Source of the DNA: Tuwongella immobilis
GTDB lineage: Bacteria; Planctomycetota; Planctomycetia; Gemmatales; Gemmataceae
Direction of reading: 5' to 3'
Assembly (NCBI RefSeq): GCF_901538355.1
Contig: NZ_LR593887.1
Span: forward strand, 124,001 to 188,000
DNA length: 64,000 bases
The position numbers and the translations under genes were made by a program. Numbering within the stretch: the stretch's first letter is position 1; each line of letters begins with the position of its first letter. The notes below the pieces were generated by a model that had not been told where the DNA came from, did not search any database, and saw only the letters and a list, made by a program, of their open reading frames with translations. Shown piece by piece: positions 2,471-18,996 of the stretch.

Positions 2471-2714
2471 CCCGCCGAACGCATCCTTCAGCAGAAGGCG
2501 TATCTGCCGATAGGGTGTTGCGATTCAGTCGATTTCGGATCGACTGATCATGTGGGTTGGGCGAATCACCCCGTTGTGTCAGGATATTAATGTTTTGAGA
2601 AGTGGATTGTCAAACAGAATCGTCGTGACATGCTTCAACAGATCGTGCGTGGATTCCTCATCTGGCTCAGTGTAAGGCTCCCGATTGGCTCTGGGGATGA
2701 GCGCAATCGGGAGG
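2471..2714. repeat. Direct repeat R2, copy a (244 bp)
   Basis: Aligns with 3190-3433 at a constant offset of 719 bp, at roughly nine-tenths identity by eye. It contains a short inverted motif (GTCGATTTCGGATCGAC). Both copies keep a minus-strand reading frame reading PIALIPRANREP ... DEESTHDLLKHVTTILFDNPL, with mostly conservative changes, so the repeat may carry the end of a former coding sequence. It occupies most of the gap between the genes at 1882-2460 and 2823-3176. Confidence 0.9.
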
Positions 2715-3189: not shown

Positions 3190-3433
3190 CCCGCCGAACG
3201 CATCCTTCAGCAGAAGGCGTATCTGCCGATTTCGGATTGCGAATCAGTCGATTTCGGATCGACTGATGATGTGGGTTGGGCGAATCACCCTGTTGTGTCA
3301 GGATATTAATATTTTGAAAAGGGGATTGTCAAACAGAATCGTCGTGACATGCTTCAACAGATCGTGCGTGGATTCCTCATCTGGCTGACTGCAAGGCTCC
3401 CGATTGGCTCTGGGGATGAGCGCAATCGGGAGG
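3190..3433. repeat. Direct repeat R2, copy b (244 bp)
   Basis: Partner of 2471-2714. It lies between the 5' end of the 2823-3176 gene and the 3' end of the large FtsK-like gene at 3470, and forms nearly the whole of that gap. Confidence 0.9.
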
Positions 3434-3469: not shown

Positions 3470-6400
3470 TCAGGGAGTTGAGTCGATCGCACAGCGGCGA
3501 GCGAGGGCGGCGGCGACTTCGGCGAGCCAGGATTCGCTCGGCGGGCCGTAGGGGCGGAATTTTTCCGGGTGTTCCAATTCGTCGTGGGTGAACAGTGCCC
3601 GGTTGCGGCCCAATCGGCTGGCGATTGGCGAATCGACCAAGTTGCTCGAATCTCCCGCGCTCATCTGGAACAGCACACGCTGCCCCAGGTCGCGGAGTGT
3701 TGAGCGATCCATGGTGCGATTCAAGTTGGTCAACGAATCAATCCACAGCAGCACATGCACCCCCACCGGCGGGCCATCTCGCAGCAGGGTGACGAGTTGA
3801 TCGCCGGGGCTGGCCGCGCGATCGCCGCGCCGACCGAAGCTGTAATCATCGTCCGCCTTGCGAACTTCTCGGAATCGCTGAATGCCGTGAATCACCAAAT
3901 ATCGCGGGGCGGAATCGGTGCTGTCGCCCTTCAAGCGGCGTTGCACTTCGTCGCACAACTCGGTGAATGTCGTGCCCAGCGCGGTGCGGTTGACCAGCGT
4001 GGCCATGGGGCGAAGTGCGGTTGTAACTTGCGGCAGCACCATGGCTTGCGAATCGTCGGCATTTGAGCCATCGAACACGAATAATCGGGCATCGGGGCCT
4101 TGCTGCAAGCCAATGCTGACGATGGCGCTGGCCAGGACGGATCGAGCGGATTCTTCGTCTTGGCCGATGAGCAGCAGGTTGGAGCCGGATTGCCGTCGGA
4201 AGATGGCCGCTGTGGGGTCTTTGATCGCAATGGCTTCGCCCAGCCAGGCTTGCGCCAATGCGGTGGCCCCCTCGTTGCGATTCTGCCGGGCGGTCCAGGT
4301 GGCGGAATCCAACAATTGGGCCAACTGCCGATTCTTTTCCAGCGCGGCGGCGGCGTTCCCCTCGAAGGTCAGCGGTCGCATGTGGGCATAGCGGGGATCA
4401 GCGTCGGCCTTGGCGCGAATCGATTCGAGAATTTCTTCGCGCTGATCGTCTTCCAGCCAAACGACTTGGAATAAATCGTTGCCTTCGATCAACCCCCCGG
4501 CATCGTTGTAAATCGCTTCGCCGGGGCGGGAGAGCAGCCGGGCGGCGTAGTTGTCTTTGTTCAGAATCAATTGGGCATCGGTTTCGCTGCATTGAAGGGC
4601 GATGCGGACTGCCATCTGATCGATGGTACTGCGGGCGAGCGTGTAGGCACCGCCGAGGGTTTGCGAGCCGAGCAGCACATGCAGACCGAACGCCCGACCT
4701 TGCCGCACCAAGCGATCCAGCAGCAGCGCGGAATCTTGGGCGATGCGATCATCGGCGACGAAAAACTCCTGGAATTCGTCGACGATGAGCAGAATTCGCG
4801 GCAGCGGCTCATTCGGGGCGGCTTCGCGGTAGCTGGCCACATCGTTGACGCCCAAATTGCGGAAGCGATCACCGCGTTCCCGCAACTCCGCATCCAAGCG
4901 TTGTAGCACGCTCAGGCCGAACTCGCGTTCGCTCTCGATGGCCACGACTTGCGCGTGGGGCAAGCCGAACGCCGCATATGGTTTGAATTCGACGCCCTTT
5001 TTGAAGTCGATGAGATACAACACGACTTCATCCGGACGATAATGCAGCGCGACATTGCAGATTAACGCATGCAGAAGCGTCGATTTTCCGGAGCCGGTCT
5101 TCCCGGCGACCAGAACGTGTTGCGAGGTGCCTTTGCCCAGCGACATGAACTGCCGTTTGGTGGCCCCCGCTCGGCCCAGGGCGACCATCACACCGCTGCG
5201 GCTGTCGCTGTGCCATTCCGCCTCGGGACGCGGGGCGACGAAGCTAAACGGCACTTGCACCCGGTTCGCATCCAGGCTGCGTTCGCCGACCATCTGCACC
5301 AGCCGCGTCATCATGCCATCATCGGGCGGTGTTTCCAATTTGAGCGGAAAATTGCCCAAATCGTTGTCTTTCCAGGCGAATCCATCATCCTTCCAATTCA
5401 GATGTGTGCAGAGTTGTTCTAGGTCGTTCAGTGTGAATCCCTGCGGCAGTGGCGAGCGCGTATCAACGCTGAGCAGCGTATACACCCCACAACTTCCGCC
5501 GGTTTGAACGATGCTGACCAATCGGCGGGCGGCTTCCGGGGTGAATTGGGCCGGGAAGTTCGCCACCACCAGCACGCGAAACGGCTCGGCGACTTCGCCC
5601 GCGTGGCTGTTGTATTCGACAATGCTGCGGTATTGGTTTCGCAGGTATTTTTGGATGACCGTTTCCATGTGCGCGGTCAAATCGGTCAGCCGTTGTTCGA
5701 TCTGATGCGGCTCGGTCCAGATACGGCCGTTGATGAGATTTTCATCGTAATCGGCCAAGTGCATGAATGCGGCGAAATTGTCGCCCAGCCCGACGGGGTC
5801 GATGATGGTGAAGCGGACCTTGCCGGGGGGCAATGCGGTGAGGAAACGCAGCATCAGCGATTGCAGCGATTGAATCGCCACCGTGCGGCCTTCATCGCGA
5901 GCCTTCAGCAGTACGGAACAGCGATCCGGGAACGGCAAAAACGCGGGCATGCGAATGGGGCCATCTTCCGGCATCGGCAAGCGATCATCCAGCGGCTGTT
6001 TCGGTTTGAGCAGATTCCAATTCAGCGTTAATGTGCCGAATGGAATGCCGCCGGGCACCGACATCGGCACCGGTCGCTTGCTGTCGAGCAGTTCGGACCA
6101 GGCGGGAAAGGACGCATCGCGGGCTTCGAACAGATCGGCGAGCGTCGATTCGAGATTTTCGAACACGCTTCGCCAGCGTTCGGCCATTGCGTTCCATTTG
6201 TTGTCCCGTTCGGTGCGCAGCAGCGTCAGGCGGCGGTCGCAAATCGATTCGGCGGCGGCGATGAGTTCGTCCAACTCGCGGGTTTTGGTCGAATGGGCGA
6301 TGGAGTATTCGGCGGTGGCTTTCCCCAGGGCGGAATCGTGTTCTTTCTGGGCGGATTCGCTGGCGGTGCGGAGCGTTTCTTCCAGTCGGGCGCGTTCCAT

Positions 6401-7246
6401 CGATTCGTTGCGATCGATTTGTTCCAGGGCGGGTTCGTATTTGTCGCGGGCTTCCTGGTTGGCTTGCGATTCCTGCACGACCGCGCGACGGCGGGCGGCG
6501 TCGTGTTCCAACTCGGTTTCCTTGACGAGTTGATCGCACCAGCGTTTGCCCAGGGCGACTCGCGCGAGGACGGCAGCTCCGTGCCCGGCGATGCGACCCC
6601 GACCCAGGCCGAGCATCCGCTTGAGCATGATCCACGGTCCGCGCCGCAGCCATTGCACATCCAGAATGTGCTGGGCTTCTTCGATCATGGCTTGCAGGTT
6701 GGCGCGGGTGGGTGGCTCGGTATCTTGCGGCAATTTCGGGCGAGCGGCGGGATCGGAGACACGGAAGTGCCGCAGCATTTCGCCCGCTTCGGCCTGGAGA
6801 TCATCGAGTTGTCCGCGCAGTTTCTCCAACTGACGCAGCCCTTGATCGCGATCGCGATCGGCTTGGCGTTCGTTGGCCTCGCGCATCGATTGGATGGTCC
6901 ATTTTTTGTCATCGTACCGCGTTTGGATATTCTCGCGGGCTTCCTCCGCTTGATCGGAGACGCGTTCGAGCGCCTCGGTGCAGCGGGCTTTGAACGAGGC
7001 TAGATTTTCTTTTAAGCGTTGGGCCAAGGCATCGCGGCGGGCGAAAAAGGTGGCATCGATTTCGCCAATTTCGGATTCCCGACGTTCGAGCAGTTGTTTC
7101 TTGGCCTTGTTGCGATCGCGTTCGGCGGTTTCGCGGCCGTTTTCGTAATTGCTGGCCAGGGTTTGCTCGAGTTGGCTGCGTTCGGCGATGAGTTGGGTCA
7201 AATCGCGCAGGGCAACTCGCTGACGTTCCGCGAGCAGTTCGGACAT
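3470..7246 (-). CDS. FtsK/SpoIIIE-family ATPase, EccC/EssC-like, with coiled-coil N-terminus
   Basis: A 1258-residue protein starting at the ATG at 7246 (GGGAG 8 bases upstream). Residues 1-160 and 240-380 are highly charged coiled coil; a basic patch with little true membrane character lies between. Residues about 430-640 look like a degenerate ATPase module (FTIIDPVGLGDNFAAF, no P-loop). Residues about 680-930 are the canonical FtsK domain, with Walker A GKTGSGKS at 715-722 and Walker B ILLIVDEF at 818-825. Residues about 1000-1240 form a third module with a degraded loop (LLLIGQDEESARSVL). Three tandem FtsK modules are the hallmark of EccC/EssC, the motor of type VII secretion, but the usual membrane segments and FHA domains are absent. 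Upstream genes include a WXG100-like protein, supporting a substrate-motor pair. A DNA-pumping role cannot be excluded. Confidence 0.88.
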   Translation of the reverse strand: MSELLAERQRVALRDLTQLIAERSQLEQTLASNYENGRETAERDRNKAKKQLLERRESEIGEIDATFFARRDALAQRLKENLASFKARCTEALERVSDQAEEARENIQTRYDDKKWTIQSMREANERQADRDRDQGLRQLEKLRGQLDDLQAEAGEMLRHFRVSDPAARPKLPQDTEPPTRANLQAMIEEAQHILDVQWLRRGPWIMLKRMLGLGRGRIAGHGAAVLARVALGKRWCDQLVKETELEHDAARRRAVVQESQANQEARDKYEPALEQIDRNESMERARLEETLRTASESAQKEHDSALGKATAEYSIAHSTKTRELDELIAAAESICDRRLTLLRTERDNKWNAMAERWRSVFENLESTLADLFEARDASFPAWSELLDSKRPVPMSVPGGIPFGTLTLNWNLLKPKQPLDDRLPMPEDGPIRMPAFLPFPDRCSVLLKARDEGRTVAIQSLQSLMLRFLTALPPGKVRFTIIDPVGLGDNFAAFMHLADYDENLINGRIWTEPHQIEQRLTDLTAHMETVIQKYLRNQYRSIVEYNSHAGEVAEPFRVLVVANFPAQFTPEAARRLVSIVQTGGSCGVYTLLSVDTRSPLPQGFTLNDLEQLCTHLNWKDDGFAWKDNDLGNFPLKLETPPDDGMMTRLVQMVGERSLDANRVQVPFSFVAPRPEAEWHSDSRSGVMVALGRAGATKRQFMSLGKGTSQHVLVAGKTGSGKSTLLHALICNVALHYRPDEVVLYLIDFKKGVEFKPYAAFGLPHAQVVAIESEREFGLSVLQRLDAELRERGDRFRNLGVNDVASYREAAPNEPLPRILLIVDEFQEFFVADDRIAQDSALLLDRLVRQGRAFGLHVLLGSQTLGGAYTLARSTIDQMAVRIALQCSETDAQLILNKDNYAARLLSRPGEAIYNDAGGLIEGNDLFQVVWLEDDQREEILESIRAKADADPRYAHMRPLTFEGNAAAALEKNRQLAQLLDSATWTARQNRNEGATALAQAWLGEAIAIKDPTAAIFRRQSGSNLLLIGQDEESARSVLASAIVSIGLQQGPDARLFVFDGSNADDSQAMVLPQVTTALRPMATLVNRTALGTTFTELCDEVQRRLKGDSTDSAPRYLVIHGIQRFREVRKADDDYSFGRRGDRAASPGDQLVTLLRDGPPVGVHVLLWIDSLTNLNRTMDRSTLRDLGQRVLFQMSAGDSSNLVDSPIASRLGRNRALFTHDELEHPEKFRPYGPPSESWLAEVAAALARRCAIDSTP

Positions 7247-7288
7247 GGATCAGGCTCCCAGGTCGGGCGGAGGGGGCACGCAGGCGAA

Positions 7289-7519
7289 TTATTCGTCGCG
7301 GCCACGACCTTCACATTCGTGACGCATCTCGGCAAAAATCTGGGCGAGTTGATCGATGGCTTGCAGCGTATCGACGCTCATTCGGTTGAGCGGCTCCCAG
7401 ATTTGTTCTTCGAAGTCTTGGCGCATGGGGTCTTGCCAGCTCTCCTCGAAGGCGTCCCACTGGTGGCGGACGGTCTTGAGGGCGGAATAGAGTTTGCCAC
7501 GGCCAGCATCGACTTTCAT
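7289..7519 (-). CDS. Small helical protein of the WXG100/FtsK cluster
   Basis: A 76-residue protein whose ATG at 7519 lies 3 bases after the stop of the preceding gene. Its AAGGA site overlaps that gene's end, so translation is probably coupled. The sequence is almost wholly helical: a basic first helix, then HQWDAFEESWQDPMRQDFEEQIWEPL and DTLQAIDQLAQIFAEMRHECE. The W-x-D-x-x-(R/Q)-x-x-F pattern (SWQDPMRQDF) is reminiscent of the turn region of WXG100-type proteins with WXD instead of WXG. It may therefore be a second ESAT-6-like partner. Exact family membership is uncertain. Confidence 0.8.
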   Translation of the reverse strand: MKVDAGRGKLYSALKTVRHQWDAFEESWQDPMRQDFEEQIWEPLNRMSVDTLQAIDQLAQIFAEMRHECEGRGRDE

Positions 7520-7522
7520 GGC

Positions 7523-8062
7523 TTATCCTTGTGGGGGAGCAGGGGGGGAACCTGCCTCGGCGGCACCGGCGCTGGAGGGCGGCGCTTGGTCGAGGTATTG
7601 TTGCAGTGCCCCAATCTGACGAGCCAGCAGTGCCAATCCCCGGGCGACATCCGCATCCAGGAAGTGATTCAGCCGACGCGAGGGGCCTTCGTACAGTTCC
7701 AGAACCATTTGGCGCATCCGCAATTTCCAGCGGCGGACCACCTCTTGTTGATCCTGGGCGAATTCCAATCGGGCTTTCGCTCGCCGAACTGCACGCTCTT
7801 GCAGCGTGGTATCCGGCATGCGACCCGAATAATCCGGATACCGCCGATTGCGAAGTTCCGTCAGTGCTTCGTGGACTTCTTCCTCGGCATCGCGGGCGGC
7901 TTGCACCCAGAACCGGGCCTTTTCGTCTAGCCACGATTCCGCCCGATGGATTTCGAGCTGAATCGCTGCCAGCGCATCCAACGCCTCGGTTCGGTACACG
8001 TCCAATTGCCCCCGCCAGGTGCGGAGTGCTTCCAGGGAATTCACACCGGCACCGGAATTCAT
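7523..8062 (-). CDS. Coiled-coil protein of the WXG100/FtsK cluster
   Basis: A 179-residue protein with the ATG at 8062 preceded by AAAGGAG. It is nearly all helical and charged (LDALAAIQLEIHRAESWLDEKARF; RAVRRAKARLEFAQDQQEVV; RWKLRMRQMVLELYEG), ending in an Ala/Pro/Ser-rich disordered tail. No membrane segment, signal peptide or catalytic motif is seen. Its end is separated from the next small gene by 3 bases, so the two are very probably co-transcribed with the WXG100-like gene and the ATPase. A structural or chaperone role for the secretion substrates is plausible but not shown. Confidence 0.8.
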   Translation of the reverse strand: MNSGAGVNSLEALRTWRGQLDVYRTEALDALAAIQLEIHRAESWLDEKARFWVQAARDAEEEVHEALTELRNRRYPDYSGRMPDTTLQERAVRRAKARLEFAQDQQEVVRRWKLRMRQMVLELYEGPSRRLNHFLDADVARGLALLARQIGALQQYLDQAPPSSAGAAEAGSPPAPPQG

Positions 8063-8080
8063 CGGCGGGGTCTCCTTTGC

Positions 8081-8353
8081 TTACCGCTGCGAGAGATATT
8101 CTTCGATCCGCTCGGCTTTACGCAGCAGAAACGGAATATGCTCCGCGGAAAGTTCCAAAAAGCGATCAATCACCGTGAGCGTATTCTCGAATTCCGCGAG
8201 AAATCGCTCATGTTCTTGATCGCGCCAGGTTTCGCTGAGCGTGCGCATCTGCCCGTGGAGTGCGGACAGTTCGCTATGAAGATCGCCGTTGAAGCGTTTG
8301 AGCAACGCGGCAAATCGCCGCAGTTCGTTCGGATCGACAATCGCCTGCGCCAT
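8081..8353 (-). CDS. WXG100-like (ESAT-6 family) protein
   Basis: A 90-residue protein with the ATG at 8353 (GAGGG 7 bases upstream). Size and layout match WXG100 proteins: an N-terminal helix (DPNELRRFAALLKRFNGDLHSELSALHGQ), a turn containing TWRD in place of the canonical WXG near residue 43, then a second long helix (ERFLAEFENTLTVIDRFLELSAEHIPFL) of the type that forms the four-helix dimer. WXG100 proteins are small secreted substrates or partners of EccC/EssC ATPases. The presence of such an ATPase three genes downstream on the same strand supports this call. The altered Gly is the main reservation. Confidence 0.8.
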   Translation of the reverse strand: MAQAIVDPNELRRFAALLKRFNGDLHSELSALHGQMRTLSETWRDQEHERFLAEFENTLTVIDRFLELSAEHIPFLLRKAERIEEYLSQR

Positions 8354-8374: not shown

Positions 8375-8911
8375 TCACTTCTTGGGGCCGACCAGTTCGA
8401 CAAAGTTGCCATCCGGATCCCGCACCACGATGATGCCCACGCCGGTGGCCAATTCCTTGGGCAGACTGACTGCGCCATCCGTGACGGGTTTGATTTCCAG
8501 CTTTTCCAGCCGCTTCAGGGCTTCATCCACATCTTTGACCATGATCGTCAAATAGCGGAAGCCCAATTGCGAATGGATGAAGGTATTGTTGCCCGCGGCG
8601 GGTTTGGTCGCCGGCAATTGCATCAATTTCAGCTTGGTCGCTTTGGCATCTTTGCCCAGCACCAGCACGCGCACATCGAGCGGCTGCTTGTCGGTCAGGC
8701 CCAATTTGGCGGAAAATTCCCCGTTCACCGAAAAGCCTCCCGCTTCGGTAAAGCCGATCGCTTGCGTGTAAAACTGGACCGACTTTTCGACATTGCTGAC
8801 CACCATGCCCAGATCGATGGTGGTGCTGGCAATGGGACTTTCCGGTTCAGCCGCTGACACCGATGGGACAATCGCCAGCATGCCGAGCAGAACCAAGGCG
8901 CGAATGCGCAT
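8375..8911 (-). CDS. Secreted VOC-superfamily (glyoxalase/dioxygenase-like) protein
   Basis: A 178-residue protein. The ATG at 8911 is chosen because it begins a clear signal peptide (MRIRALVLLGMLAIVPSVSAA, cleavage after the Ala-Ala) and has an AGAGGG site upstream. The mature part has the paired beta-alpha-beta-beta-beta pattern of the vicinal oxygen chelate fold: IDLGMVVSNVEKSVQFYTQ near the start and IIVVRDPDGNFVELVGP at the end, which is the typical closing motif with its metal-ligand Glu. VOC proteins include glyoxalase I and ring-cleavage dioxygenases; the substrate cannot be told. Only 21 bases separate it from the WXG100-like gene downstream, so it may be co-transcribed, though the functional link is unclear. 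Confidence 0.85.
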   Translation of the reverse strand: MRIRALVLLGMLAIVPSVSAAEPESPIASTTIDLGMVVSNVEKSVQFYTQAIGFTEAGGFSVNGEFSAKLGLTDKQPLDVRVLVLGKDAKATKLKLMQLPATKPAAGNNTFIHSQLGFRYLTIMVKDVDEALKRLEKLEIKPVTDGAVSLPKELATGVGIIVVRDPDGNFVELVGPKK

Positions 8912-9182
8912 GAGAAACCCTCTTCCGAACAGATTATACGGGAACCACCCTTGCTCCGTTGGCAAGTTCTGCCGAATTGTACTTCCTTTCCGGGGGCGTC
9001 CGCAATCATCGGGTCGGGGGCGAGGCGGGATCGGCCTTCCCGAGTGGGCCACACTCGGGGGCGATGGATGCGAAATCATGGATGGGTGAACGACGGAAGC
9101 CTCGAGAAACCCACTGCAATTCCAGGGATTTTTCGAGGCATGCCCGATCAGCCGCGATTGCGCCCACGCATGGGCATCCGGC

Positions 9183-12558: not shown

Positions 12559-15500
12559 TCAGTCCGGCAACTTTGGCTCCCGGGGTGGGGTTTTGAATCG
12601 CGATGGCGGCACCGGCTTCGGCTTCTCGATGAGTTCCTTGAAGTATTGTTCCGCCTCTTCGTACTTACCCTGCGCGTACAGCGATTCCGCGATTTGCAGC
12701 CGAATCTGCCGCGAATCCGGCTTCAGCTTCAACGCGGTGCGGAACAATTCCATGCTCTTGTCCCGCTCCCCGATGCGCCCCATGATGTACCCCATTCTCG
12801 CCAGATAGTCCGGGTCTTTGATTTGCTTGACGCTGCGGGTGTAAATGGTTTGCACGTTGCGGCGAACTTCGGTCGAAAGCTCATCTTCGCCCACAGCGGC
12901 GATGGTGTCGATGAACACTTTCCAGAATTCGGGATTGTCGCTTTCGGTCTCCATCAACACCGGCAGTCGGGCCAGCGCCGTGGGATGGTCACCGCTCCAC
13001 AAATAGCATTGCGTTAATTTGAAGGCGATTTTCACATTCCGCGGATCTTCTTCCTGCAACGATTCGTACAGTTCAATCGCCTCGGCGTACTTCTTGCTCC
13101 AGGTCAGCACATCCGCCAGTTGCAGCCGCACCACTTTGTCGCTGGGCTTTTCCTTGAGAATGATTCGGAGCTGTTTCTCGGCTTCCTCGAATTTGAAGAT
13201 GGCCGAGTACAGATTCGCCATCGTTTGACGATCCGCGAGCGTCAGCGCTTTGATGCCATCGAACATCGCCAGCGCTTCGGTAAAGCGTTCGTTCCCGGCC
13301 AGCGTCCCGGCCAGTTCCCGACGAATGTCTTCCTCGACAATCGTTTGCTTCATGGCCCGATTGAGCAACTCCGTGGCCCGCTTCTTGTCATTGGCCTTCA
13401 GCAGCACCCAACTCAACCGCGACAGCCGACCTGGATCGTTGAAATCTTCTTCCAAGACGCGATCCGCCACATCCTTGGCCATTTGCGTTTGGCTGGCGGA
13501 AAGGCTCGTGGTGCTGGACGCCGCATCAATGAATCCTTCGTACAATTCGGCTCGATCCAGCGATTCACGCAGCAGCGATTCAAACACTTTCAGCGATTCG
13601 GGATAGTGTCGGCTCCACAGATTGACTTCCGCAATCCGCAGCAGAATATCCTCATTCGTCGGTTGCGATTCGAGCAATTCCTGGAACAGCGACAATGATT
13701 CGTCGTAGTCTTTCTTCCAACTCAGCACGTCGGCCAATTGGCGCTGGGCGATTTTGTCATCGGGCCGATCGAGCAATTGCTGACGGGCCAATCGCGCGGC
13801 CAATTCGTAATCCTGGGCCGCCGATGCCATGCCGATCAACTGCCGGCGGTCGTTCATGTCCAACTTCAGGCCGTCGTACAGGGTAATGGCTTCGCTGTAG
13901 CGTTTCAGCAGCGACAACGTCCCGGCCAATTCGCGGCGTTGTTGCGGATCGGTCGGTTTGAGCGCCAGTGCCCGATCGATCAGCATTTCGGATTTCCCGG
14001 TTTCCTTCAGCCGGTACATCACCCACCCCAACCGCGACAGCATGCCCGCATCTTTGTTGTTGGTGAGCATGACAATATCAAACAGCTTGCGGGCCATTTT
14101 TTCGTTGCCCGGCGTGAGCGCCCGAGCGCTAGATGCCGAGCTGACCCACCCGGAAATCAGCCGCGGATTCGGTGTTTCGGTGGGGTTGGCCTCCAGCATC
14201 GTCTGGAATCGCAACAGCGCCCGATCGAACGCGGTGCGGTCGCTTTCCCCGGACCAGAGAATCACCTCCGCAATGCGAATGGGAATTTCGGGATCTTCGG
14301 GATAAATTTGCAGCAGCCGTTGGAATTGCTCCAGCGATTCGGAGAAATTCCGCCGCCAACTGGCGACATCCGCCAAGAAGAACTGCGCCTTGCGGTTGTT
14401 CGGCTCTTTTTCGAGCACTTTGCGCATGGTCACTTCGGCTTTGTCGAAGTCTTTGGCACCGGAGTAGAATTCCGCCAGACGGATCATCCCATCCGTGTCG
14501 AGTTTGTCGGTTTCGATCAACTTGATGGCATCCGGGAAGCGATCCGCCCGCGCCAACACGCCTGCCATTTCGGAGCGGATCTCCGGTTCGGTCGGCTTGA
14601 GCGCGAGTGCCCGGTCGAGCAGGCCGTTGATGCGCACCCGGTCGGGCGTATTTTTCTGCTCCGACAGCAGTAAAATCCACGCCAAGCGCGACAGGCTGAC
14701 GGCGTTCAATTTCAGCGTCATATTCGCCAATCGCTTGTCGGCGATTCGTCGCGCCAGTTGCGATTGGGTTTCGGTCAATTCTTTGACCCCGGCGGCGGCA
14801 TCAATGAAGCCTTGCACCAATGGGGGATCGTCGGGCTTCTTCAGCAGCAATTTCTCGAATGCCGCCACCGACCGCGTGAAATCCTTGCTCCAGAGCAGAA
14901 TTTCCGCCTGGCGAACTTGCAATTCCAGGTCTTCCGGTGCGGCCTGGATCATGTCGGCGAACATCGTTAGCGCCGGGCCATAATCGCCCTTCCAACTCAA
15001 AATATCCGCCAGCAGTCGCCGCGTTTTGCCGTCCCCTGGCTCGGCATCCAACACCCGGCGACATTCCTTCTCTGCCTCATCATATTTCTGATCGCGCAAG
15101 TACATGGCGATAATCAACTTGCGGGCTTCCATGCTGTTTTCATCGCCCAGCAAATTGAGTGCATCTTCAATTTTGCCCACCGATACCAGCACGCCGAAAT
15201 ACTGCTTGCGGAAATCCGCATCCTTCGGATTCATCTGCAACGCCCGTTCGATCAGCACCAAACTGGGCTCCAGTTCTTTCACCCGTTGCAGCACCCAGCT
15301 GAGTCGGGCCAGGAACCACGGCTCGATATCGGATTGCGTGATGATTTTGTTGTAAATCGATAGCGCAGTCTTGCGGATCTTCTCGTCCAGCAGTCGATCC
15401 TCGACACTGGCGGCGGCATCGACATACGCATGCACCAATTCGGTATTCGGATTGGGATTGTCGTCAAATAGTTGCTGCAACTGCGTCATCGCAGTTTCGT

Positions 15501-18500
15501 ACTGCTTGGCGGCCAGCGCATTGCGGGCGAGCTTGATTCGCAGCGTGGGATTCTTCGGATCGGCGGCGATGAGCCGTTCGTAAATCGCTCGCGATTGGCC
15601 GTACCCCTTCTTGGCGCTTAGCACATCCGCCAGCATCTGCTCGGCTTTGCGGTCGCCGGGCCGCATCTGCAACAATCGGCGGCACTCGATTTCCGCTTGC
15701 TCGTAATTTTGTTCCAGCGAATAGATGGAAATCAGCCGAATTCGCCCATCGAAATCGGGGTCGATATCCGTGTACAACTGCCGGGCTTCCTGCAATTGGC
15801 GGGCCGTCACCAGCACCCCGGCAAACTCGTTTCGCAGCGCCATATCCAGCGGATTTTCTTTCAGCAATTCCCGGAATTGCTCGAATGCCTGCGTGTATTT
15901 CTTGGCGTGGACCGATGACCGGGCGGCGGCCAAGCGCAGTTCCCGCTGTTTCTCGGCGGGCAATAATCCCCGACGGGACAGATCCAACATCCGCTGGAAT
16001 TCGACTTCCGCTTGTGCGTATTCTTGCGTGTCGTCGAGTGCCTGCGCCAGCGCGATTTGCAGGTCGGTATTGCGACGGTCTCGCGGAGCAATCAGCTTGG
16101 TAATTTCGTCGATTTCTTGCGTGCGTTGAATGCGGTTCAACGCGGACATCAGCAGCACCAGGCGATCCGTGCTGGGATATTTTTCCAAGAATGTCGCCGC
16201 GTAAATCGTCTCGACTCGCTCGACTTGATCTTCTGAAAGATCCATGTCGGCAGGTGTGCGGACAATGTCTCGCAGGTAGAATTCTTCCCGATAAATCAGG
16301 TAGAACGCCAGTTGCTGAGCGGCCAACACGGGCACGGTCAGCATCGCCCCCATGGCAATGCGATTGAACATTTTCACGGGCAACGGCTGGCGATCCGGCG
16401 ACAGCACCGAGCCGTAGCTGGTGTTCTCTCGCGGGTTGACCAGCGATTGCAGCGTGGTGCGGCCCGAGGCGGTGAAGTCTTTGAATTCAAAGACAATGCG
16501 ATGATATTCTCGCGCTGCGTAAATCACCTTCGAGCCGAACAGCACCTTCGCGGTGCCTTTCACTTCGCCCAGCGGGGAGGGGAGCACATAATTGACGACG
16601 CTGCCGGGAATCAGCGGCTCATCCAGCAAACACGCAAACGCAACGCGGCTCAGGTCTTCCGTCGCGGAATAAATCCGCTGCGCTGCCTGCAAGCCATCCG
16701 TGCGATTGGCCCCCGACAGCGAGATGGAACTGCGAAACGCCCCCGTGCCCGATTGCAGCATCTCTTGCGCGGTCGCCCCGCTCGATCCGGCGGGTTCCGA
16801 GGTGATGGTGCCGCTATTGCTGGTGCGGACGGTGCCCGAACTGCTGGAATGGCTGCCGCTGGCGGTGAGTGCGCCGGCTTGTTGCAGTCGCAATTCGGTG
16901 GAATCCAAGAAATCGCCGCCGACATCGGCCAAGCCGCTATCGGATTGATCGTACACGCGAGGCAGTCCCGCCGCCGGTGTTTTGATCGCTGCGACGGACT
17001 GCGTGCGATTGGCAGCCATCGGCTTTTCGATAATCACCGGCAGATTGTACGGGTATCGAAAGGCCGTGCGGCGCTGCACCATGCCCCGTTGCCGCCAATT
17101 CAGCATGCGATTGAGCCAGTTGCTCGCATTCCCACGATCATACACTTCGTACATTCGCGGGACGGCATAATGCAAGCAGATGCGATTGAGCGCATCAATG
17201 TCGTTGGGTGACAAATTGTGGAACAAGCAGCCATAGCGATAGCCGTGCATGGTGCCAGACACGCGCCGATTGAGCGGAACGACGCCGCGCACTTCGGATT
17301 CGCAGACGAGTTCCACCCCCGCTCCGCGAATGACCGTGCGCAGCCGCGTCCCCTGCGGAATCACCTCGTAAGCGATCAGCGCCATGCCGTTTTCGTTGAG
17401 ATCCAACGTCACGCCAAATCGATGATTGGGGTTGGGATCTTCGTGCAAGAGTCGATATTCAACGGGCAGATGCACCACATGCCGCGAGTTGAAGCGGCGG
17501 TCTTCCGGCCAGAATGCCCGCTTGAGTGTCAGGTAAATGAGCAGGCCGTGCAGCACTACCCAAATCGTCGGCAGCACCGGCTTGAACCAGTCGTCGGAGA
17601 TGCCGATAATCGGCCGCCCCCAGCCCCACACCAGGGCCATAATGCTCAGCAATCCCAAGATGAGCTGCGGACGAATGTACGGCCAGATACTCTTCGCCTG
17701 TCTGCCGCGCTTGCTGGTCACCACAAATTGCTGGAACTTCCGCCAGAAGGTGGCCCGCGAGACACCCCGCACTTGCGTCCAGAAATTGACCATGCAAAAC
17801 AGTTCGGAATTGATGATCGATGCGTGGCCGTTCCCCGCAGCTTTCAACCCCCACAGACTAATCACCATGTATAAAAAGGTGATAATCACCAACGTCCAAC
17901 TAAATTGATTCACCGGCGGCACCCCGGTGAACAACATGAAGATGGGCGTGAGATAGATTGGCAGTTTGAACAATCCGCCGGCCCAGTTCAGCATCGATCC
18001 CAGGTAGCAAAAGCGCTGCGACCAGGTCAACCCGCGAGTGGTCATCGGGTTGTCGTAGGCCATAATCGACAGATTGCCTTCGCCCCAGCGCAGTCGTTGC
18101 GTGTGGAAGGTGGTGATATCCGGCGCGGCTTGTCCGCAGACGAGTCGGTCGCTAATGGCCAGCGATTTCCAGCCCAGCGCGTGCATGCGCAAGCCGGTGT
18201 GCATATCTTCGGTGATGGTTTCGACGGCAATGTAGCCGACCTGCCGCAATGCTTCGCGGCGGAAAATCGCTGCCGACCCCGCGAAAATCGGGCAGTTCCA
18301 GCGATTTCGGCCGGTCTGGATGACCTTGTAAAACAAGGCACCTTCGTCCCAGTATTTGCGGGCTTTGTGATCGAGTCGGGCTTGGAACGATTCGAAATTG
18401 TAGAATGCGTGCGGAGTTTGCACCCAGGCCATTTTCGGATCGCGGAAATATCCCAATGTGCGGGTGATGAAGTTGGGTTCGGGTACGTGATCGGCATCGA

Positions 18501-18996
18501 AAATGATGATGAATTCGCCGTTGGTCTTCTCAAAGGCGTGATTCAAATTCCCGGCCTTGGCATGACGATTGTCGGGGCGAATGATGTAATGCACGCCCAA
18601 TTCTTTGGCCAATTCCGCCATCGCGGGCCGCTTGCCGTCGTCGCAGACATAGGTATTGTGCGGATAATCCATGCGGATGCAGGCTTCCAGCGTGGCGCGC
18701 AGCATCGCCGGGTCTTCGTTGTACGTTGGCACGAAGACATCCACGGTCACGCCGTCCAGCACGGGCTGTTCGGGTGGCTCGAACGGATCCCACACTTGCA
18801 GGAAAAACAGCAACAGAACGATGAGTCCGTAGACTTCGCCAATATACAGAAACAGCGAGGCGAATGTGGCCCACGGTGTGGCGAGATTCAGCGTAAACAA
18901 TCCACGATACACCACATACGCAATGCTAATCAGCGATGCGAGAATGATGAGCGTTTGCCGAAAGCGGCTCTGATTGTGACTCGTCGTCTGAATCAT
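12559..18996 (-). CDS. Giant BcsA-like cellulose synthase - PilZ - TPR fusion protein
   Basis: A 2145-residue protein. Residues 1-70 hold two membrane segments. Residues about 82-310 are a family 2 glycosyltransferase with DDG (119-121), DAD (167-169), TED (262-264) and QRLRW (300-304), the set used by processive synthases such as BcsA. Further membrane segments follow (about 330-400, 440-495). Residues about 497-620 are a PilZ-like domain (R501xxxR505, then DLNENG at 532-537, in which the usual Ser is Asn), suggesting c-di-GMP control if still functional. A Ser/Thr/Gly-rich linker, a second beta-rich PilZ-like region and one more membrane segment near 900 precede about 1200 residues of TPR-type helical repeats. 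In enterobacteria TPRs for cellulose export reside in a separate protein, BcsC; the covalent fusion here is unusual. The product may be cellulose or another beta-glucan. Confidence 0.9.
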   Translation of the reverse strand: MIQTTSHNQSRFRQTLIILASLISIAYVVYRGLFTLNLATPWATFASLFLYIGEVYGLIVLLLFFLQVWDPFEPPEQPVLDGVTVDVFVPTYNEDPAMLRATLEACIRMDYPHNTYVCDDGKRPAMAELAKELGVHYIIRPDNRHAKAGNLNHAFEKTNGEFIIIFDADHVPEPNFITRTLGYFRDPKMAWVQTPHAFYNFESFQARLDHKARKYWDEGALFYKVIQTGRNRWNCPIFAGSAAIFRREALRQVGYIAVETITEDMHTGLRMHALGWKSLAISDRLVCGQAAPDITTFHTQRLRWGEGNLSIMAYDNPMTTRGLTWSQRFCYLGSMLNWAGGLFKLPIYLTPIFMLFTGVPPVNQFSWTLVIITFLYMVISLWGLKAAGNGHASIINSELFCMVNFWTQVRGVSRATFWRKFQQFVVTSKRGRQAKSIWPYIRPQLILGLLSIMALVWGWGRPIIGISDDWFKPVLPTIWVVLHGLLIYLTLKRAFWPEDRRFNSRHVVHLPVEYRLLHEDPNPNHRFGVTLDLNENGMALIAYEVIPQGTRLRTVIRGAGVELVCESEVRGVVPLNRRVSGTMHGYRYGCLFHNLSPNDIDALNRICLHYAVPRMYEVYDRGNASNWLNRMLNWRQRGMVQRRTAFRYPYNLPVIIEKPMAANRTQSVAAIKTPAAGLPRVYDQSDSGLADVGGDFLDSTELRLQQAGALTASGSHSSSSGTVRTSNSGTITSEPAGSSGATAQEMLQSGTGAFRSSISLSGANRTDGLQAAQRIYSATEDLSRVAFACLLDEPLIPGSVVNYVLPSPLGEVKGTAKVLFGSKVIYAAREYHRIVFEFKDFTASGRTTLQSLVNPRENTSYGSVLSPDRQPLPVKMFNRIAMGAMLTVPVLAAQQLAFYLIYREEFYLRDIVRTPADMDLSEDQVERVETIYAATFLEKYPSTDRLVLLMSALNRIQRTQEIDEITKLIAPRDRRNTDLQIALAQALDDTQEYAQAEVEFQRMLDLSRRGLLPAEKQRELRLAAARSSVHAKKYTQAFEQFRELLKENPLDMALRNEFAGVLVTARQLQEARQLYTDIDPDFDGRIRLISIYSLEQNYEQAEIECRRLLQMRPGDRKAEQMLADVLSAKKGYGQSRAIYERLIAADPKNPTLRIKLARNALAAKQYETAMTQLQQLFDDNPNPNTELVHAYVDAAASVEDRLLDEKIRKTALSIYNKIITQSDIEPWFLARLSWVLQRVKELEPSLVLIERALQMNPKDADFRKQYFGVLVSVGKIEDALNLLGDENSMEARKLIIAMYLRDQKYDEAEKECRRVLDAEPGDGKTRRLLADILSWKGDYGPALTMFADMIQAAPEDLELQVRQAEILLWSKDFTRSVAAFEKLLLKKPDDPPLVQGFIDAAAGVKELTETQSQLARRIADKRLANMTLKLNAVSLSRLAWILLLSEQKNTPDRVRINGLLDRALALKPTEPEIRSEMAGVLARADRFPDAIKLIETDKLDTDGMIRLAEFYSGAKDFDKAEVTMRKVLEKEPNNRKAQFFLADVASWRRNFSESLEQFQRLLQIYPEDPEIPIRIAEVILWSGESDRTAFDRALLRFQTMLEANPTETPNPRLISGWVSSASSARALTPGNEKMARKLFDIVMLTNNKDAGMLSRLGWVMYRLKETGKSEMLIDRALALKPTDPQQRRELAGTLSLLKRYSEAITLYDGLKLDMNDRRQLIGMASAAQDYELAARLARQQLLDRPDDKIAQRQLADVLSWKKDYDESLSLFQELLESQPTNEDILLRIAEVNLWSRHYPESLKVFESLLRESLDRAELYEGFIDAASSTTSLSASQTQMAKDVADRVLEEDFNDPGRLSRLSWVLLKANDKKRATELLNRAMKQTIVEEDIRRELAGTLAGNERFTEALAMFDGIKALTLADRQTMANLYSAIFKFEEAEKQLRIILKEKPSDKVVRLQLADVLTWSKKYAEAIELYESLQEEDPRNVKIAFKLTQCYLWSGDHPTALARLPVLMETESDNPEFWKVFIDTIAAVGEDELSTEVRRNVQTIYTRSVKQIKDPDYLARMGYIMGRIGERDKSMELFRTALKLKPDSRQIRLQIAESLYAQGKYEEAEQYFKELIEKPKPVPPSRFKTPPREPKLPD

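What the first reader, a model, noticed from the sequence alone, without database searches (positions are those of the whole stretch)
3470..8353. Stripped-down type VII-like locus: WXG100-like protein, two helical proteins and a three-module FtsK ATPase
The sequence shows four minus-strand genes with 3- to 42-base gaps: a 90-aa WXG100-like protein (TWRD in place of WXG), a 179-aa coiled-coil protein, a 76-aa helical protein with a WQD turn, and a 1258-aa ATPase. WXG100 proteins with a multi-module FtsK-type ATPase are the known minimum of type VII secretion (EsxA/EssC or EsxAB/EccC). Here EccB, EccD, EssA, EssB and EsaA-type membrane parts are all absent. Whether this is a secretion system, an intracellular scaffold or a DNA-handling system is open.
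Basis: partly seen in the sequence, partly recalled or inferred. Interest (0 to 1): 0.75.

Follow-up and report, generated by a model that had tools for sequence, protein, structure and literature searches.

The report
Stripped-down type VII-like protein machine
Four adjacent genes in a planctomycete encode a reduced relative of the type VII protein-secretion motor (two tiny WXG100-type hairpin proteins, a long helical hairpin and an EssC-type ATPase) that is always inherited as a set in its phylum, yet in this genome the ATPase has lost the membrane anchor that nearly all its relatives keep.

Summary
In detail: four minus-strand genes, g1 (90 aa), g2 (179 aa), g3 (76 aa) and an ATPase (1258 aa). 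g1 is a WXG100 protein; its profile's best PDB match is H. pylori HP0062, which also has WRD for WXG. g3 is a WXG100-fold hairpin by structure prediction, g2 a long helical hairpin. The ATPase is an EssC/EccC relative in which only the middle of three FtsK modules is catalytic (138 of 138 orthologues). The kind is known in outline (Zhang 2012 'solo WXG'; H. pylori HP0062/HP0066; CoCoNuT-associated operons). New here: among 294 planctomycete genomes the ATPase and g2 occur in the same 54, g1 in 53 of those and no others, nearly always single-copy, even where the genes are scattered over the chromosome. The ATPase tree follows taxonomy, so here the system is vertically inherited, not mobile. And 134 of 138 orthologous ATPases carry a transmembrane hairpin between two coiled coils; the window's copy has lost it. 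EssB and YukD are absent genome-wide. Best reading: a minimal T7-like motor, membrane-anchored in most relatives, soluble or peripheral here. Whether it exports anything is unproven.

The parts
8081..8353 (-). g1: 90-aa WXG100 protein, hairpin turn W-R-D instead of W-x-G; relative of H. pylori HP0062 and of EsxA/EsxB
   Evidence: Pfam WXG100 8.8e-8 over cut-off; profile to PDB 3fx7 (HP0062) 7.2e-12, EsxB about 1e-9, EsxA 2e-6; 14 invariant columns in 30 orthologues incl. W43 and D45
7523..8062 (-). g2: 179-aa protein, two long antiparallel helices (residues 9-74, 86-159) and a Pro/Ala-rich tail; adaptor, carrier or former effector slot
   Evidence: AlphaFold2 pLDDT 91.5; 42-row family with invariant Y156 and near-invariant W44, W52, W112; one copy in each of the 54 ATPase-positive genomes of 294 and in no other
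7289..7519 (-). g3: 76-aa second WXG100-fold hairpin, turn W-Q-D (W28 and D30 invariant)
   Evidence: AlphaFold2 pLDDT 93, helices 2-27 and 31-75; Foldseek top hits EsxA:EsxB, CFP10-ESAT6, EsxEF, HP0062 (TMq up to 0.85, E-values not significant); profile match to g1; 4 of 39 members hit PF06013 at E up to 0.05, best 9.3e-5
3470..7246 (-). ATPase: coiled coils plus three FtsK/HerA-type modules, EssC/EccC relative
   Evidence: orthologues at about 50% identity in most of 40 relatives
6539..6649 (-). site of the lost transmembrane hairpin (about residues 200-236); a short basic, weakly hydrophobic segment remains
   Evidence: best 19-residue hydropathy 0.79 here versus 1.5-3.2 in 134 of 138 orthologues; reading frame intact
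5267..5959 (-). ATPase module D1, catalytically dead (no P-loop lysine, no D-E in Walker B)
   Evidence: alignment of 138 orthologues; second PF01580 stretch in own genome
4457..5218 (-). ATPase module D2, the only one with intact motifs: Walker A GKTGSGKS (5081-5104), Walker B D-E (4775-4780)
   Evidence: GK[ST] in 138/138 and D-E in 137/138 orthologues; FtsK_SpoIIIE 677-863
3512..4249 (-). ATPase module D3, degenerate (no GK[ST], no D-E)
   Evidence: 0 of 138 orthologues carry GK[ST] or Walker B D-E there; EssC/EccC models extend over it to residues 1075 and 1219

Best explanation
The locus is a self-contained, vertically inherited four-part machine of the 'solo WXG plus three-module FtsK/HerA ATPase' kind, that is, a reduced relative of the type VII secretion core. 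Shown by sequence and prediction: two WXG100-fold hairpins with W-x-D turns (g1, g3), a long helical hairpin (g2), and an EssC-type ATPase with D2 as the sole catalytic module between degenerate D1 and D3. Inferred: g1 and g3 form an EsxA/EsxB-like dimer that, alone or with g2, is the client or adaptor recognised by the ATPase, which works as a hexamer (from FtsK/EccC knowledge) and uses D2 to pull or remodel these helical proteins. In most relatives a transmembrane hairpin between two coiled coils anchors the motor in the inner membrane, so export across, or assembly at, that membrane is the likeliest job of the family. In this genome the anchor has been deleted while everything else is kept, so here the machine is probably cytoplasmic or only peripherally membrane-bound.
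For: WXG100 and EssC/EccC relationships; g3 fold; four-gene order in Planctomycetota and Verrucomicrobiota; obligate co-occurrence: of 294 genomes the ATPase is in 54, g2 in the same 54, g1 in 53 of them and in none of the rest, g3 in 15 of 15 tested genomes, mostly ones with rearranged genes, even when all four genes are unlinked, as in G116; single copies nearly throughout; ATPase tree follows family labels, 10 changes against a minimum of 9 and a shuffled mean of 42; transmembrane hairpin in 134 of 138 orthologues; D2-only catalysis; H. pylori HP0062 is a solved dimer of the same kind with WRD.
Against: No export data. YxxxD/E and the H-x3-D-x7-H pattern are absent from g1. No EssB or YukD. 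g1, g2 and g3 are single-copy and conserved, more like machine parts than like effectors. Hairpin loss in the window and in L126, L130 and L141 shows that membrane insertion is dispensable. The g1:g3 dimer was not modelled. No outer-membrane partner was sought.
Confidence: 0.5

Rival explanations
1. An intracellular, non-secretory machine: the ATPase remodels a helical scaffold or handles DNA or protein complexes in the cytoplasm, and the membrane hairpin of relatives only tethers it.
For: The window and three other orthologues have no transmembrane segment yet keep intact ATPase motifs. No other membrane protein lies in the cassette and EssB/YukD are absent. T7 C-terminal signals are absent. 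Published coiled-coil relatives lack transmembrane helices and their authors expect a different mechanism.
Against: 134 of 138 orthologues keep the hairpin, so membrane placement is under selection in most lineages; the WXG100 pair and EssC-like ATPase are hallmarks of export elsewhere.
Confidence: 0.27
2. A conflict or defence module: the ATPase and WXG proteins deliver or control a toxin in g2's position.
For: On a Helicobacter plasmid the g2 position holds a helical protein with a Colicin-DNase/WHH nuclease domain followed by a SUKH immunity-type gene; on a Caballeronia plasmid the cassette sits in a vWA/CARF/PP2C/kinase island; Zhang 2012 called such loci mobile; Phycisphaerae g2 is fused to an Imm33-like domain.
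Against: In Planctomycetota the ATPase tree follows taxonomy; no toxin, immunity or defence gene is conserved beside it; window g2 has no effector domain; plasmid matches are only 26-32% identical and phage and viral matches are distant. Sequence homology of window g2 with the Helicobacter toxin's helical part was not detected.
Confidence: 0.15
3. A decaying relic in this genome: hairpin loss is the first step of pseudogenisation.
For: The window copy is the only one of its family, among those examined, that clearly lacks the hairpin.
Against: All four frames are open and all D2 motifs are intact; g1 is 43-69% identical to its orthologues. The same loss is seen in other lineages that keep the partner genes (L126, L141).
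Confidence: 0.08

Closest known systems
'Solo WXG' plus YueA-like three-module HerA/FtsK ATPase (Zhang et al. 2012, PMC3482391, Table 1 note 6)
   Same: Planctomycetes and verrucomicrobia named; small WXG protein; [quoted passage not shown]
   Different: Described there in one footnote as mobile versions of T7SS; here vertically inherited, with g2 and g3 as obligate partners and a membrane hairpin in most copies
EssC-like ATPase/WXG100 operon of type III-A CoCoNuT and TerY-P islands (PMC11090510)
   Same: D2-only ATPase with long N-terminal coiled coil, two WXG100 proteins one of which lacks WxG, and a coiled-coil protein
   Different: There the coiled-coil protein carries a nuclease, a DNA-mimic follows and no transmembrane helix is present; here no nuclease or mimic, and 134/138 orthologues have a transmembrane hairpin
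Helicobacter pylori HP0062/HP0066 'WXG100 secretion system' (PMC4978471, PMC3397514)
   Same: HP0062 is the best PDB match of g1, with WRD in the turn, dimeric, and clustered with an FtsK-type gene
   Different: Only HP0062 was compared here, through its PDB entry; the related Helicobacter plasmid version has a toxin and an immunity-type gene between
Type VII secretion (EsxA/EssC, EsxAB/EccC)
   Same: WXG100 proteins plus EssC/EccC-type ATPase; membrane hairpin upstream of the ATPase modules in most orthologues
   Different: No EssB or YukD; only D2 active; coiled coils in place of FHA domains; W-x-D turn; no YxxxD/E; exactly one g1 per genome

Membership tests
WXG100 family (g1) | Match over the curated Pfam cut-off | tested here: met
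   32.7 bits against 27.3; NCBIfam TIGR03930 26.9 against 44.85, not reached
WXG100 family (g1) | W-x-G motif in the turn | tested here: not met
   W-x-D in 50 of 50, W-x-G in none; HP0062 also has WRD
WXG100 fold (g3) | Two-helix hairpin of about 70-100 aa with the W motif in the turn | tested here: met
   AlphaFold2 model pLDDT 93, turn at W28-Q29-D30; nearest folds are Esx proteins, though E-values are not significant
EssC/EccC ATPase | Tandem FtsK modules aligned to EssC/EccC | tested here: met
   TIGR03928 2.2e-30 over 677-1075, TIGR03925 to residue 1219, PF01580 two stretches; equivalog cut-offs not reached
EssC/EccC ATPase | Catalytic motifs in D1 | tested here: not met
   D1 positions lack P-loop lysine and D-E; D2 intact in 138/138
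EssC/EccC ATPase | Transmembrane hairpin before the ATPase modules | tested here: not met
   Absent in the window copy (hydropathy 0.79), present in 134 of 138 orthologues
Type VII secretion system | EssB/YukC and YukD (T7SSb) in the genome | tested here: not met
   No match; B. subtilis control rings
Type VII secretion system | EccB (T7SSa) in the genome | tested here: inconclusive
   No match, but no control genome rang
Type VII secretion system | C-terminal YxxxD/E secretion signal | tested here: not met
   0 of 50 g1, 1 of 55 g3
Type VII secretion system | ATPase-dependent export of the WXG100 protein | not testable with these tools
   needs cell fractionation in a living strain
Solo-WXG/three-module FtsK systems (Zhang 2012) | Small WXG protein with a three-module ATPase active only in the middle | tested here: met
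Solo-WXG/three-module FtsK systems (Zhang 2012) | Mobile | tested here: not met
   Tree follows taxonomy in Planctomycetota; no close copies in plasmid, phage or viral collections

The most novel reading that the evidence does not exclude
A vertically inherited WXG100/EssC-type machine that does not secrete: an obligate four-protein intracellular motor in Planctomycetota and Verrucomicrobiota in which the membrane anchor is optional. It would show that the T7SS core (WXG100 pair plus triple FtsK ATPase) is, or was before T7SS, a general remodeller of helical proteins.
Probability: 0.27. Interest if true: 0.78.

Novelty: new variant of a known kind. Interest (0 to 1): 0.55.

Why it matters
Type VII secretion is studied almost only in Gram-positive bacteria and mycobacteria, with many membrane parts. 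Here is a four-gene version in diderm bacteria that is inherited as an indivisible, single-copy set across a phylum. That makes the smallest working set of a WXG100/FtsK motor a direct question. The natural losses of the membrane hairpin (window, L126 and L130, L141) offer a ready comparison between anchored and unanchored forms, which bears on whether the ATPase itself has to span the membrane.

Tried and rejected
Conserved genomic neighbours as a clue to function: none beyond the four genes, and none informative around scattered g1 copies. The apparent absence of small partners beside some ATPases was first taken as a counter-example, then rejected: the partners are elsewhere in the same genomes. 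A frameshift as cause of the missing hairpin was considered and rejected: the frame is intact and the segment is simply shorter. Homology of g2 to the Helicobacter toxin's helical part was looked for and not found; the match to a Rhodococcus plasmid protein (1.5e-8) may be coiled-coil bias. Foldseek for g2 gave only generic coiled coils. PADLOC matches are only to the FtsK/HerA ATPase core and a coil. An amphipathic membrane anchor replacing the hairpin was tested by hydrophobic moment and not supported over a coil control.
Full report
CHECK OF THE OBSERVATION. g1 matches Pfam WXG100 over the cut-off (8.8e-8) and is the only PF06013 match in the 6.69-Mb genome. The ATPase is a clear FtsK/SpoIIIE protein (8.8e-39) whose best curated relatives are EssC and EccC (2.2e-30 and 4.8e-30) and whose best solved relative is chain 4nh0, an EccC-type ATPase (7.8e-33). 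The genome's only other FtsK_SpoIIIE gene is an 829-aa protein, presumably the cell-division FtsK. A relative in the same family is titled Gemmata sp. (L070 and L040 lie on one 85,418-base contig), so the host is probably a member of Gemmataceae (inference).

SMALL PROTEINS. A 30-row g1 profile (mean column identity 67%, planctomycetes and verrucomicrobia together) finds H. pylori HP0062 (3fx7, 7.2e-12; 2gts), then EsxB and EsxA in the PDB. HP0062 is reported as a dimeric helix-hairpin-helix with WRD in place of WXG and an FtsK-domain gene in its cluster (PMC3397514). All 50 g1 and 55 g3 sequences carry W-x-D and none W-x-G. g3 is a second hairpin: AlphaFold2 gives helices 2-27 and 31-75 with the turn on W28-Q29-D30, pLDDT 93. 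Its top Foldseek hits are EsxA:EsxB, CFP10-ESAT6, EsxEF and HP0062, TM-scores to 0.85, although none has a significant E-value, as expected for a 76-residue hairpin. The g1 and g3 profiles match each other over 36 columns (P 3e-5, hhalign probability 73%), and 4 of 39 g3 members hit PF06013 at E up to 0.05, best 9.3e-5. g2 is predicted as two antiparallel helices of 66 and 74 residues, pLDDT 91.5, without a specific structural match.

ATPASE. In 138 non-redundant full-length orthologues D2 has GK[ST] in all and D-E in 137; the D1 Walker B position reads A-[DN]-F-P and never D-E; D3 has neither motif (four rows show a GK[ST] string near the D1 site, not at conserved positions). Upstream of D1 lie two coiled coils. 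Between them 134 of 138 orthologues have hydrophobic segments of 19-residue hydropathy 1.5 or more (124 have two), i.e. a transmembrane hairpin; the window copy (0.79), L126, L130 and L141 do not (sequences). Hydropathy is a simple measure; no dedicated topology predictor was at hand. The frame across the site is intact and the segment is shorter than in relatives. The window's nearest clade otherwise keeps the hairpin, so the loss is on its own branch (inference).

GENOME-WIDE LINKAGE. Among 294 planctomycete genomes at least 90% complete, the ATPase is found in 54, g2 in the same 54, one copy each, g1 in 53 of them and in no other, one copy each; the exception, G032, has its ATPase on a 6.6-kb contig. 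One genome, G094, has two full ATPase matches. g3 was tested in 15 of these genomes, chosen mostly because their genes are scattered or rearranged, and found once in each. In G116 ATPase, g1, g3 and g2 lie near 0.23, 0.71, 1.94 and 2.66 Mb of one chromosome; its g2 match runs over one stop, at the end of the profile. So the four genes behave as one functional unit independent of linkage. Where linked, the order g1-g2-g3-ATPase is kept in Planctomycetota and Verrucomicrobiota, g2 and g3 usually overlapping by 4 nt; in G186 and G298 g1 has moved behind g3. The ATPase tree follows family labels: 10 changes where 9 is the minimum and shuffles give 42 (FastTree, several weak deep branches). No fifth gene is conserved beside the cassette. 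The four proteins are thus inherited vertically with lineage-wise losses, rather than as a mobile element, in this phylum.

RELATED VERSIONS. More distant relatives lie on plasmids. On Helicobacter pNHP190012_1 the order is WXG, a 340-aa helical protein with Colicin-DNase/WHH nuclease domain, a SUKH/SMI1 immunity-type protein, a 77-aa protein and the FtsK gene. On Caballeronia pSBC2-5 the cassette stands between vWA, CARF, PP2C and kinase genes. In Phycisphaerae (L071, L104 and weakly L108) g2 is fused to an Imm33-like domain. So the g2 position can hold toxin- or immunity-type domains, but the window's g2 has none, and sequence homology between it and the Helicobacter toxin's helical part was not detected; the parallel is one of position only. 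Searches of phage and viral collections gave only distant FtsK-core matches.

MECHANISM. Shown: parts list, D2-only catalysis, obligate co-inheritance, anchor in most relatives and not here. Inferred: hexameric motor, g1:g3 dimer as client or adaptor, g2 as rigid carrier or lever, export across or assembly at the inner membrane in relatives, a soluble or peripheral form here. Against classical secretion: no EssB or YukD in the genome, no YxxxD/E signal, single-copy conserved partners, and a dispensable anchor. I put an export- or membrane-assembly-type function of the family at about one half, a non-secretory machine at about a quarter, a defence or toxin module at 0.15.

KNOWN OR NEW. [quoted passage not shown] The CoCoNuT paper describes the same ATPase type with N-terminal coiled coil, no transmembrane helix and two WXG100 proteins, and cites a stand-alone mobile form. 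H. pylori has HP0062/HP0066. A 2024 survey of T7SS subtypes treats Gram-positive bacteria only. Additions made here are the obligate four-gene set, vertical inheritance in Planctomycetota, the membrane hairpin in nearly all copies and its loss in this genome, and the identification of g3 as the second WXG100-fold partner in this lineage. Hence: a new variant of a known kind.

Noticed in passing
window 12559-18996 (-): A 2145-aa protein that joins a BcsA-like cellulose-synthase-type glycosyltransferase with PilZ domain to more than 1000 residues of TPR repeats in one chain.
   Followed up: no
window 2471-2714 and 3190-3433; 1265-1363 and 1783-1881: Two near-identical direct repeats (244 nt at 94%, 99 nt at 95%) just downstream of the cassette; recent local duplications.
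   Followed up: no
window 8375-8938 (-): A glyoxalase-fold protein with an apparent signal peptide ends 21 nt upstream of g1 on the same strand and may be co-transcribed; it is not conserved beside the cassette.
   Followed up: partly
L144:3199-3800: Between g2 and g3 of a verrucomicrobial cassette sit two small genes that look by eye like a RelE/HigB-type toxin and an HTH antitoxin.
   Followed up: no
L071:4299-5360, L104:1581-2600, L108:3205-4212: g2 of Phycisphaerae carries an extra C-terminal Imm33-like domain (PF24719, best 1.4e-14).
   Followed up: partly
L147:5489-10919: On a conjugative Rhodococcus plasmid the related FtsK gene is followed by a helical protein, a 73-aa protein and an 87-aa WxD protein, next to TerD genes; the order is reversed relative to the window.
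   Followed up: partly
genome G116, C1 near 0.23, 0.71, 1.94 and 2.66 Mb: All four genes of the cassette are unlinked on one chromosome yet all are retained, a natural test of functional coupling.
   Followed up: yes
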